Assembly (NCBI RefSeq): GCF_020382885.2
Contig: NC_058502.1
Location: forward strand, 12,799,950-12,863,949
DNA length: 64,000 nucleotides
From: Scatophagus argus
Taxonomy: Eukaryota; Chordata; Actinopteri; Scatophagidae
Direction: 5' to 3'
Part shown: positions 7,728 to 24,559 of the stretch, one piece after another
Numbering within the stretch: position 1 is the stretch's first letter
Layout of the letters: the number at the start of each line of letters is the position of its first letter
Notes under the pieces: model-generated
The model's database searches: none
What the model saw: only the letters and a program-made list of their open reading frames with translations
What the model was told of the DNA's origin: nothing
Translations under genes and position numbers: made by a program

Positions 7728-8147
7728 CTGGTGGAACAACACTGACCAGATGGAGGGTTTTCTGTCTCTCACTGAAGAAGCCTTGTTTTAAAGGAACCAT
7801 CGTTCCCAGCTATCATACTAAAACTTGTGTGTTGTGTGGTAACTTAACTTTAATGTTACTAGATACCTTGCAAAAGGCACCAGTGGGTGTTAAACAGATG
7901 TAAGATTAATTACTACTCCAGTGGTGGCAGCACACCAGATTTTCTCAAGCTTTGCAGGTGCTGTTGTTTGTTTTGGCAGCGGTTCACATCATACAACAAA
8001 AGCTGTCAGTGTTAGCAGAAATAATCATGTCAAAAAAAAAAAAAGGGAACAAGTTTAAAGAATAACATTTATATTCCTGACTGCCCACATGCTATGTCTT
8101 TTATGATTAAAGTTAATATGTTTGTGATTTTTTTCTTATCAAAACTG

Positions 8148-8153
8148 AATAAA
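8148..8153 (+). terminator. tmem14a: tmem14a poly(A) signal
   Basis: This AATAAA lies about 420 bp after the tmem14a stop. It sits some 140 bp before the opposed GST-A poly(A) signal, so the two genes are convergent and nearly abutting. The right duplicate lacks this stretch. Confidence 0.5.
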
Positions 8154-22100: not shown

Positions 22101-24559
22101 CTGGGCCCATGCACAGAAGGTTCTCAGGCTTCATGTCCCTGTGAAAAAACCCTAAAAAAGCCACACTACATGAGCATCTTGAGTTGAATGATACAAAATA
22201 TTAGTTGTGCCACATTTAACTTAGTGCCCTGCAGTCGTAAACAAACGTACCATGTTTATGAATGAATGCAAGCCCCTGTAGTATCTGAAACATGATATTT
22301 CTTACAGCAGATTCAGGAAACAGCCGAGTCCTGCAACAAGAAACAAACAGTTGAGAAACTGCAAGCAAATACAGTTTTAAAGATTGCATAAATAATGGAA
22401 CAACTATACGCACCTGTCTTTCATTAGCTGATATAAATTCTCCTTCATGTACTCAAATATAAAGTACAAGTGATCATTTTCTCGAATTACCTCCTTGAGT
22501 TTGATCACATTAGCATGGTTGAGTTTCTTTAAGGACTGAAAGAATACAGAAAGAGATTAGCATAAGAATATCGTGGGACACAAAACAAAAAAAACTTAGA
22601 AATACTATGTCTAACCATGCTTGACAATACACACAGGTCACTGCAGCACATTCAATAGCACGCCCTACAACTCTCAAACAAAACCGTTCTTGTTAAAACA
22701 TGGCTTGTATAAGAACAAAATGTAACCGGAGGGGAAATCCTGCAAAGGTGGGATTTCTGCTTAAAATTTAAAAAGGGAAAATAAATATAGAGTAATAGAC
22801 AGCAGGGTGGAGAAATCAAGAGTTTTCCCATGCACTGGGATGATACAGGTTTAACCATGCTAAATTTTAGTAAGGGGAAAAAGCTGTAATGGGATTTTGA
22901 GAATGTATGGCGTGACATGCTGTAATTTTCTCTAATTAGCAGAACTCTAAAGGACCAGCGTGTTGTACACATTTTGCTGCATTAAAGCTCCAGGAAAAAG
23001 GGGGGGTTGTGTAGGCCGGGGATGGGAAGAAGAGCTCAAAACCAACAGCACACAAGAATCACCTTCTGCTCTTAGAGTTGGTGTGTGACTTTGAGCTGTG
23101 AGGACATTTAGACAGTAACATACTGAATTGGTGTGAAAAGAAACAACACAAAATTTTGAGACAGCTGCACAAAAGATGTTTGCATCATCATAACTGCATT
23201 ACCCACAAATCATCAAGTCGTCATGGAGCTCCTTATAACTTCTAAAATTTAATTTAACCCAAACAGATTCACAGGGTCTGACAACAAAACACTGTTTGTA
23301 CATTAAACATTACATGTGCTAGTTAATGTTTGCGATTCAATTTTGATGTTCACTGATCCATCCGTTCTGTACTACTGCTTATACTGCACTGCAAAACTGA
23401 TATTACCAACAGGTGCTGCAAAGTCTGAAATTTCCTAAGACTACAAATAACATGCTGTACATATCAGTGGAAAACAATGTTAATATTTCAACATTAATTT
23501 GACCATTTTAGAAATAAACTGCACATGTCACCACTCTCTTATATCTTAAAAAGTACCCCACAGGGTACCTTGGTGTGAAAGGAATACAATACTTAGTGTA
23601 ATATCATCAGGTCAGCAGTTGGACTAAGGATACGACAAGCATGACCAGAAATAGCCATGCTGCCTGTGCCATCACTTTGCTTTTAACAGTTTCGGTTCAG
23701 GTGCCCTGCTGATATCACTGACTACTTCTGTCAGTCCCTTCACTGTCTCAGTTACAGGCATATTTATTTTACTCAGTGAAGTGCAGCCCACATCATGTGA
23801 CAGACATGATACAGCAATGATAAAATCATCTGTTGTCCCACTCCTCCACAACTCTGTTAAGATAAGCTAATAATACCCGGGGAGCTTGATAACGAGACTG
23901 AACAGCCAGTACAATACAGCAGTACATTAATAAGGGGACAATTTAATATTCATTTGATCAGTAAATGATGATTCTCTTCCAAATCAAAGATGCAACCACA
24001 CTTCTAAATTGTTTACATTCTATAATAATAATGTACAGAAAAGCTCATTTTGGTTTGATCTTTCCATAATTCGGCTGAGGTGTTCAAATGTGTTTAAAAT
24101 GTCGAAAAAATAAACTCACCTTGACTTCACGAAGATTCATGCATTCTTCCCAGGAATAGAATTTTCTTTTCATTCTGAAAAAATATTTCTCCAATTATTA
24201 ACTAAATTGTTGGAAATGTCATCAAATTGCTAAGCACTCTTACTGAGTTTCTCTTTTTACCAGCTGTTACATCTAATATTCATCCACACATGATGATACC
24301 CCAGCAGTTACACACTGTAATCCTTAGAGACAGGCTGTCATAATACAAATCACTGGTTTTCACAAAAAGCAACATAAATATGGTGAGGAACATCAGTAGT
24401 ACACTGAATAAATCTATTGCAGATCGCATTGAAATGTGCAAAATTTCCTGGTACTCACTTCTTTATGGCAACAAGCTCTCCAGACTCCAGACTGCGGCCG
24501 AGGATGACTGAGCCGTAGGTGCCATCCCCGAGCTGTCTGATGGTAGTGTATCTATTCAT
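19150..24559 (-). CDS. cilk1: cilk1/ick, ciliogenesis-associated kinase 1
   Basis: Thirteen coding exons: 24559-24459, 24174-24120, 22535-22414, 22330-22251, 22151-22019, 21924-21753, 21430-21263, 21179-20799, 20693-20485, 20281-20139, 19698-19582, 19501-19394, 19301-19150. They total 1941 nt, 646 residues (human about 632), and every junction keeps phase. The kinase domain has GDGTYGSV, VAIKK (Lys33), HRDMKPEN (Asp125), DFG (143-145) and the TDY activation motif (157-159) of the MAK/ICK/MOK family. The C-terminal tail is low-complexity, Q/P-rich (exon 20799-21179), then RRRWGHSTGH, and ends HGRTDWSAKYGHR, the conserved ICK tail. The kinase acts in cilia on intraflagellar transport. Coding exon 2 and intron 2 were copied into 10671-14310. 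The acceptor of exon 20693 has two options 4 bp apart; I took the one that keeps frame. Confidence 0.95.
23031..24166 (-). repeat. source segment of the cilk1 duplication
   Basis: Most of cilk1 intron 2 plus 47 bp of exon 2 recur in the GST spacer at 10671-14310. Here the segment is uninterrupted by LINE inserts, which shows that the inserts in the other copy came after the duplication. Confidence 0.85.

What the first reader, a model, noticed from the sequence alone, without database searches (positions are those of the whole stretch)
7778..24166. Tandem duplication of a tmem14a-GST-7SK-cilk1 unit, later gutted in the left copy
Two near-identical blocks (7778-10617 and 14322-17183) each hold a complete GST. 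Between them lies a fragment that matches cilk1 intron 2 and exon 2 (23031-24166) in order and orientation. The simplest history is one tandem duplication from the tmem14a last exon to cilk1 exon 2, giving GST-7SK-partial cilk1 to the left of GST-7SK-full cilk1, followed by deletion of the left 7SK body and cilk1 3' exons.
Basis: partly seen in the sequence, partly recalled or inferred. Interest (0 to 1): 0.75.

Follow-up and report, generated by a model that had tools for sequence, protein, structure and literature searches.

The report
Duplicated fish GST gene block
In a fish, probably the spotted scat, a stretch of chromosome with a detoxification gene, a 7SK RNA gene and part of a kinase gene was copied side by side; the left copy lost most of the RNA and kinase parts, while the two detoxification genes stayed alike except mainly at the part thought to choose their targets.

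Summary
One block (right copy 14322-24166, 9.8 kb, from the tmem14a 3' UTR into cilk1 exon 2) was duplicated head to tail. The left copy (7778-14310) is collinear but has lost 5.85 kb and gained insertions; genome searches found no further copy of the GST exons or cilk1 pieces. But the GST block is a mosaic: a 1.8-kb tract over most of the gene is 1.2% diverged, while the flank beside 7SK is 8.2%, like cilk1. I read this as one duplication plus gene conversion. Corrections: the left 7SK is not wholly gone (promoter and a 31-nt 5' stub remain); the right 7SK is damaged at both ends, and a canonical 7SK lies 122 kb left of the window. The two GSTs differ mainly in the substrate site: the right one is GSTA4-like (Y212 V213 V216), the left has L, L, A and K108. 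Similar residues recur in second GST copies of some other fishes. The locus is ordinary; the recurrent switch is the interesting, unproven part.

The parts
7778..14310 (+). left tandem unit (U1), gutted and filled with insertions
14322..24166 (+). right tandem unit (U2); from tmem14a 3' UTR to inside cilk1 exon 2
14311..14321 (+). 11-bp filler AGCTATTAAAT at the head-to-tail joint of U1 and U2
8492..10132 (-). GST-A, alpha class, 6 exons, 223 aa (= P0002): K108, L212 L213 A216 in human numbering
15029..16698 (-). GST-B, alpha class, 6 exons, 222 aa (= P0001): I108, Y212 V213 V216 (A4-type alpha-9 helix)
8565..10327 (.). low-divergence tract between U1 and U2 (21/1763 differences), read as gene conversion
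   Evidence: HMM segmentation; best low interval 8563-10331, permutation P <= 0.0005
8472..8564 (-). high-divergence patch (14/91) covering the GST C-terminal codons and the start of the 3' UTR
10332..10617 (+). left copy of the 7SK upstream region (23/282 differences): Staf-like 10426-10435, PSE-like 10576-10592, TATA-like 10609-10616 (motif names recalled)
10641..10671 (+). 31-nt stub of the left 7SK, 23/31 to canonical 7SK nt 1-31
10672..10998 (-). left cilk1 intron 2 piece (matches 23031-23360)
12374..12438 (-). left cilk1 intron 2 piece (matches 23371-23435)
13440..13685 (-). left cilk1 intron 2 piece (matches 23670-23916)
14093..14310 (-). left cilk1 intron 2 piece and truncated exon 2 (matches 23935-24166)
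17211..17523 (+). right 7SK copy, RF00100 243 bits; core 17246-17506 is 261/261 identical to the canonical copy L001, both ends altered
24120..24174 (-). cilk1 coding exon 2 (reads MKRKFYSWEECMNLREVK with the joined exon 1), copied only up to 24166; borders read by eye from splice letters

Best explanation
A single head-to-tail duplication of about 9.8 kb, joined with a short filler and without extended homology, copied GST, 7SK and the part of cilk1 downstream of the middle of exon 2. In the left unit a deletion took out 7SK from about nt 31 and all cilk1 exons downstream of exon 2; the leftover cilk1 intron took up insertions and is dead. Both GST genes stayed whole. Gene conversion has kept most of their length at about 1% divergence, while the part of the protein that forms the substrate site diverged. 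GST-B kept the A4-type alpha-9 helix that most relatives have; GST-A changed it to L212 L213 A216 with K108, so the likely effect of the duplication is an alpha GST with altered substrate preference beside the original. Shown: duplication, collinearity, loss, mosaic divergence, 7SK stub, residue differences. Inferred: gene conversion as the cause of the mosaic, selection on the substrate site, changed enzyme activity, order of events.
For: Collinear pieces, no other copies found. Clean edges and filler at the joint. Mosaic divergence: a 1.2% tract, with 8.2% and 15% at its two ends; best low interval beats all 2000 permutations, HMM log-likelihood -332.7 vs -355.5. The flank next to 7SK agrees with all cilk1 pieces together (23/282 vs 58/844, P = 0.51). 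7SK stub 24 nt after the TATA; the stretch that holds it has no match elsewhere in the genome. 6 of 11 residue differences fall in 27 H-site positions of 222, hypergeometric P = 6e-4 (H-site definition from passages of PMC7619206). Codons 201-222 hold 10 base differences in 8 codons, 7 of which change the residue and 1 is silent. On a tree of the rest of the protein, Scat A and B are sisters (SH-aLRT 97). 115 of 133 relatives have Y at 212.
Against: Left and right differ at 14/31 positions in the 7SK stub, with no shared changes from the canonical sequence, and the spacer before it does not align, far above the 8% flank (P = 6e-7); unexplained. The 10332-10617 flank was delimited from the same data and itself holds a quiet stretch (10372-10467, 1/93). 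There are further low and high stretches left of the GST. One cilk1 piece (13440-13685, 8/246) is less diverged than the rest (homogeneity P = 0.035). The tail's nonsynonymous excess is not significant against its own synonymous sites (P = 0.43), and against the cilk1 rate it is P = 0.01 or 0.046 depending on how codon 207 is counted. The enrichment P value treats neighbouring residues as independent. cmscan at E <= 10 does not find the stub, and it does not resemble the right 7SK's own 5' end beyond chance (shuffle P = 0.31).
Confidence: 0.8

Rival explanations
1. The duplication is old (shared by many percomorph fishes); conversion has since rewritten most of the unit, and the GST tail, codon 108 and the 7SK stub are surviving old islands.
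For: 14/31 divergence at the stub. An L-type tail with K or R at 108 is found in three Epinephelus proteins and, with I213, in Sebastes, while GST bodies group by lineage in most pairs. In 5 of 8 L/Y pairs the last residues (213-222 of the scat protein) also differ strongly, 3-5 of 10 or 4 of 7 identical, as older pairs would.
Against: Scat tail codons hold 1 (or, split over paths, 1.5) synonymous differences on 15.2 synonymous sites; at the stub's divergence the chance of 1 or fewer is 0.0016, of 2 or fewer 0.010. Residues 213-222, next to the switched motif, are alike within the pair in Scat (8/10), Sebastes (9/10) and Epinephelus (10/10, two species). Dead cilk1 intron pieces would also have to be converted.
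Confidence: 0.2
2. The left unit was never complete: duplication and internal deletion arose in one template-switching repair event.
For: Filler at the joint; the 9-mer CCAACAGCA at 10619 also occurs at 10683 and at 23042, the landing side of the deletion, and nowhere else on the plus strand of the window.
Against: Nothing here excludes it; the 53-bp stretch at the deletion (10618-10670) holds a decayed 7SK start rather than pure filler.
Confidence: 0.15
3. Two independent events: a GST duplication and a separate insertion of a cilk1 piece.
For: Aggregate divergence differs: 2.8% vs 6.9%.
Against: Order, orientation and edges fit one unit; the GST flank next to 7SK has the cilk1 value; the left 7SK promoter and stub lie exactly between.
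Confidence: 0.03
4. Assembly artefact (two haplotypes laid side by side).
For: Most of the GST gene alone is only 1.2% diverged.
Against: 8-15% stretches, insertions and a 5.85-kb loss found in the left copy only; two distinct proteins in public databases.
Confidence: 0.02

Closest known systems
Human GSTA cluster at 6p12 (TMEM14A - GSTA genes - RN7SK - CILK1 - FBXO9; recalled, not tested here)
   Same: Same gene order in the window: tmem14a, gst, 7SK, cilk1, F-box gene (fbxo9-like; F-box over its cut-off, FBO_C just under). Local duplication of alpha GSTs.
   Different: A small duplication that carried 7SK and part of cilk1 along; only two alpha GSTs found in this genome.
GSTA4-4 versus GSTA1-1 and the engineered GIMFhelix swap
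   Same: Residues that differ between the two fish copies (108, 212, 213, 216) are among those swapped (12, 107, 108, 111, 208-222) to give A1 the A4 specificity (passages of PMC7619206; PMC7138722).
   Different: Here the change is natural and away from the A4 type, in a protein that keeps G12 and F111; activity is untested. L212 and K108 are not the human A1 residues (human A1 sequence recalled).
GSTT2/GSTT2B duplication in apes (PMC3375281, abstract read)
   Same: GST copies with gene conversion between duplicates and divergence kept under selective constraint in chimpanzee.
   Different: Inverted duplication, theta class, regulatory silencing.
7SK snRNA (RF00100)
   Same: Right copy matches the whole model and has Staf/PSE/TATA-like upstream elements.
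   Different: Both ends are altered; the canonical copy is at C10:12677923-12678241.

Membership tests
Alpha-class glutathione S-transferase (both copies) | GST_N and GST_C domains over cut-off | tested here: met
   PF02798 58.9/58.5 bits, PF14497 56.4/55.2, PF00043 51.5/52.6
Alpha-class glutathione S-transferase (both copies) | Closest solved relatives are alpha class; Tyr9 present | tested here: met
   The 33 best of 60 PDB sequences shown score 222-261 bits for GST-B and 227-255 for GST-A, most named A1-A4 or alpha; the next score 79 and 77. Y9 in both; its catalytic role is recalled
GSTA4-type substrate site (GST-B) | Y212, V213, V216 in the alpha-9 helix | tested here: met
   DEIYVKTV
GSTA4-type substrate site (GST-A) | Y212, V213, V216 in the alpha-9 helix | tested here: not met
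   DEKLLKTA
GSTA4-type enzyme | High activity with 4-hydroxynonenal | not testable with these tools
   needs purified protein
Functional 7SK RNA gene (right copy) | Full-length match to RF00100 above gathering score | tested here: met
   243 bits against 35, model 1-331
Functional 7SK RNA gene (right copy) | Conserved 5' end and 3' end with U-run terminator | tested here: not met
   nt 1-39: 7 substitutions and a 4-nt deletion; 3' end with a 3-nt deletion, 8 of the next 11 nt matching, then divergent; next run of four or more T at 17557
Functional 7SK RNA gene (left stub) | RNA body present | tested here: not met
   only 31 nt recognisable
Single tandem duplication | Equal divergence along the pair | tested here: inconclusive
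   unequal in total (P = 4e-7); flank beside 7SK equal to cilk1 (P = 0.51); stub unequal (P = 6e-7)

The most novel reading that the evidence does not exclude
In percomorph fishes, second copies of the A4-type alpha GST have repeatedly and independently switched the same substrate-site residues (Y212 to L or I, often V213 to L or I and V216 to A, and position 108 to K, R or T), while the rest of the two proteins stayed alike within the lineage: a natural, replicated version of the laboratory GIMFhelix experiment, run in reverse.
Probability: 0.35. Interest if true: 0.6.

Novelty: new member of a known kind. Interest (0 to 1): 0.38.

Why it matters
As a duplication it is ordinary: one more local copy of a detoxification gene at a locus whose gene order matches the human one (recalled). 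It shows a pitfall in dating duplications by one gene pair, since most of the GST gene is six to seven times less diverged than the flank beside 7SK and the cilk1 pieces. If the recurrent substrate-site switch is real, these fish pairs are natural replicates for asking which residues turn a specialised lipid-aldehyde GST into a different enzyme, and whether selection keeps conversion out of those codons. The locus also shows a 7SK copy altered at its ends while its core stays identical to a distant canonical copy.

Tried and rejected
Two-event history: rejected because the GST flank beside 7SK has the cilk1 divergence and the left 7SK promoter and stub lie between the pieces.

The 10618-10670 stretch as random filler: weakened by the 23/31 match to 7SK nt 1-31, the TATA spacing, and no score as high in 2000 shuffles. 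I first saw that match by eye and then tested it. As a copy from elsewhere in the genome: searched, none found.

Import of the GST-A tail from a third alpha GST: no third gene found in the genome, and an old donor should bring synonymous changes, of which the tail has one or 1.5. A donor since lost is not excluded.

Rfam cmscan for a left 7SK (E <= 10): only a chance snoRNA hit, E = 7. Pfam on the insertions in the left cilk1 remnant, six frames: nothing, so calling them LINE-like rests on reading the letters. Folding of the right 7SK with its 3' flank: no more stable than shuffles (z 0.42), uninformative. PMC10974579 (passages) added only docking contacts with Tyr212 and is not used.

Full report
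WHAT IS THERE. The window is C10:12799950-12863949 of a 570.7-Mb genome. The proteins of the two GST genes are identical to two database entries of Scatophagus argus, the spotted scat, so I take the genome to be that species. Gene order left to right: tmem14a (PF03647), GST-A, remains of 7SK and cilk1, GST-B, 7SK, cilk1 (kinase-domain pieces at about 24455-24550, 22009-22152 and 21747-21950, computed, the first below its cut-off but reading MNRYTTIRQLGDGTYGSVILGRSLESGELVAIKK), and an fbxo9-like gene (F-box over its cut-off, FBO_C just below). The same order in human is recalled, not tested.

THE DUPLICATION. Self-BLASTN gives six collinear plus-strand pieces joining the left and right units. 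Reading the edges: left unit 7778-14310, an 11-bp filler 14311-14321, right unit 14322-24166. The left edge is 50 bp past the tmem14a stop codon. The right edge is inside cilk1 exon 2 (24120-24174 by splice letters), so the left unit holds 47 of its 55 bp and lacks its acceptor. The two outer breakpoints show no extended homology, which fits end joining or template switching rather than recombination between repeats (inference). In the left unit 17184-23030 of the right unit (5847 bp) is missing and a 53-bp stretch (10618-10670) stands in its place. The four left cilk1 pieces are separated by 1375, 1001 and 407 bp, where the right copy has 10, 234 and 18. Genome searches with GST-B and with 23031-24200 found matches in this window only (10 of 10 and 5 of 5); they score only their best candidates.

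DIVERGENCE. Over 2775 aligned GST-block columns there are 78 differences (2.8%); over the four cilk1 pieces 58 of 844 (6.9%); P = 4e-7. But the GST differences are not spread evenly. A two-state segmentation gives, left to right: low 7775-7986 (4/212), high 7987-8085 (12/99), low 8086-8471 (4/324), high 8472-8564 (14/91), low 8565-10327 (21/1763, 1.2%), high 10328-10371 (8/43), low 10372-10467 (1/93), high 10468-10617 (14/150). The best single low interval, 8563-10331, beats all of 2000 permutations. The 282 columns from 10332 to 10617, which end at the 7SK TATA, hold 23 differences (8.2%); their left border was taken from the same data. They do not differ from the cilk1 total (P = 0.51), nor from pieces a (29/327), b (7/65) and d (14/206) singly (P = 0.77, 0.47, 0.61). 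They do differ from piece c (8/246, P = 0.025), and the four cilk1 pieces are mildly heterogeneous (P = 0.035). I read this as one duplication with later gene conversion over most of the GST gene. With assumed rates of 2-7e-9 per site per year (recalled), a distance of 0.076 corresponds to 5-19 million years; this is rough.

7SK. The left unit keeps the 7SK upstream region (Staf-like, PSE-like and TATA-like elements at the same relative places in both copies; names recalled). At 10641, 24 nt after the TATA, it has 31 nt that match canonical 7SK nt 1-31 at 23 positions. On both strands of the 64 kb only this place and the right 7SK (25/31) reach 21 or more. None of 2000 dinucleotide shuffles of the stretch reached its local score. 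A genome search with 10560-10672 found only this place and the right copy up to the TATA. Against it: cmscan at E <= 10 misses it, and it does not resemble the right copy's own 5' end beyond chance (P = 0.31). The right 7SK (243 bits) is the third best of four matches in the genome. The best, 327 bits at C10:12677923-12678241 on the minus strand, has canonical ends and its own related upstream region. The right copy is identical to it over 261 of 261 nt (canonical 40-300), but has 7 substitutions and a 4-nt deletion in the first 39 nt, and a 3' end with a 3-nt deletion, 8 of the next 11 nt matching and no U-run. So the window's remaining 7SK is probably a pseudogene with a recently converted core; a functional variant is not excluded. 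Left and right differ at 14 of 31 positions in the stub, with no shared change from the canonical sequence, against 8% in the flank (P = 6e-7). I cannot explain this well; an older duplication or fast decay of the transcribed start are both possible.

THE TWO GSTs. Both are complete alpha-class enzymes. They differ at 11 residues plus one extra terminal residue: 4 in exons 1-5 and 7 in exon 6. In human numbering 108, 211, 212, 213, 216 and 217 fall in the substrate (H) site as defined in PMC7619206 (passages): 6 of 11 differences in 27 of 222 positions, P = 6e-4. GST-B has the A4-type helix DEIYVKTV, close to PDEIYVRTV in PDB chain 3i69, which the listing names only 'Glutathione S-transferase A1' (that this entry is the GIMFhelix mutant is recalled). 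GST-A has DEKLLKTA and K108. In PMC7619206 and PMC7138722 (passages) the alpha-9 helix, with residues 12, 107, 108 and 111, sets whether an alpha GST is an alkenal specialist (A4) or promiscuous (A1). Codons 201-222 hold 10 base differences in 8 codons; 7 codons change the residue, 1 is silent; the Nei-Gojobori count for the whole of exon 6 is 8.5 nonsynonymous and 2.5 synonymous. The nonsynonymous rate of the tail exceeds the cilk1 noncoding rate (P = 0.01 counting 9, 0.046 counting 8) but not the few synonymous sites of the tail itself (P = 0.43).

OTHER FISHES. Of 133 aligned relatives (from three searches that each list only the best 120), 115 have Y at 212 and 12 have L or I; K108 goes with L or I in 4 of 5 (P = 2e-4, not corrected for relatedness). 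Shared contig lengths in the listings suggest that the two types lie on one chromosome in Sebastes, Notolabrus, Xyrichtys and Dunckerocampus; adjacency was not tested. On a tree built without the H-site and tail columns (51 chosen rows, aliphatic or T at 212 counted as one state) the L-type copies sit with Y-type copies of their own lineage in Scat, Sebastes, wrasses, pipefishes and Nothobranchius, with 8 changes of state. On well-supported branches there are 4 independent pairs, in which 108 turns K, R or T with the switch in 3.6 on average and never the other way (sign test P = 0.125, too few to reach 0.05). 26 of the tree's 48 inner branches are open. Right after the switched motif (residues 213-222 of the scat protein) the two copies are alike in Scat (8/10), Sebastes (9/10) and Epinephelus (10/10, but two different species), which speaks for parallel change; in the other five pairs compared they are not (Notolabrus 4/10, Xyrichtys 5/10, Dunckerocampus 4/10, Doryrhamphus 4/7, Nothobranchius 3/10), which leaves older pairs possible there.

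VERDICT. The right 7SK is not intact, the left one is not wholly gone, and the unequal divergence is best explained by conversion. As a duplication it is an ordinary event; the recurrent substrate-site switch deserves a follow-up.

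Noticed in passing
L002 (C10:12539545-12539851) and L004 (C13:598734-598918): Two further 7SK copies are fused directly to the same element start GGGGGCAGCCGTGGCCTAGAGGTTGG, which looks like a tRNA-derived SINE head (recalled): probably retrocopies made by template switching.
   Followed up: partly
L001 / L005 / L006 (C10:12668500-12688300): The canonical 7SK copy lies 122 kb left of the window, on the opposite strand, about 6.5 kb from an open frame that reads like an IKK kinase (chuk/ikbkb; by eye).
   Followed up: partly
window 17246-17506: 261 nt identical between two 7SK copies about 139 kb apart, flanked by diverged ends: ectopic conversion, or selection on the core only.
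   Followed up: partly
window 10619-10627 and 23042-23050: The 9-mer CCAACAGCA of the stretch at the left deletion also occurs at the deletion's landing side; possibly a templated insertion.
   Followed up: partly
window 6277-6647: A repeat shared with the flank of L004 in two pieces (87% and 86% identity).
   Followed up: no
window 11000-13440: Insertions inside the left cilk1 remnant look like truncated LINE pieces by eye, but no Pfam match was found in six frames.
   Followed up: partly
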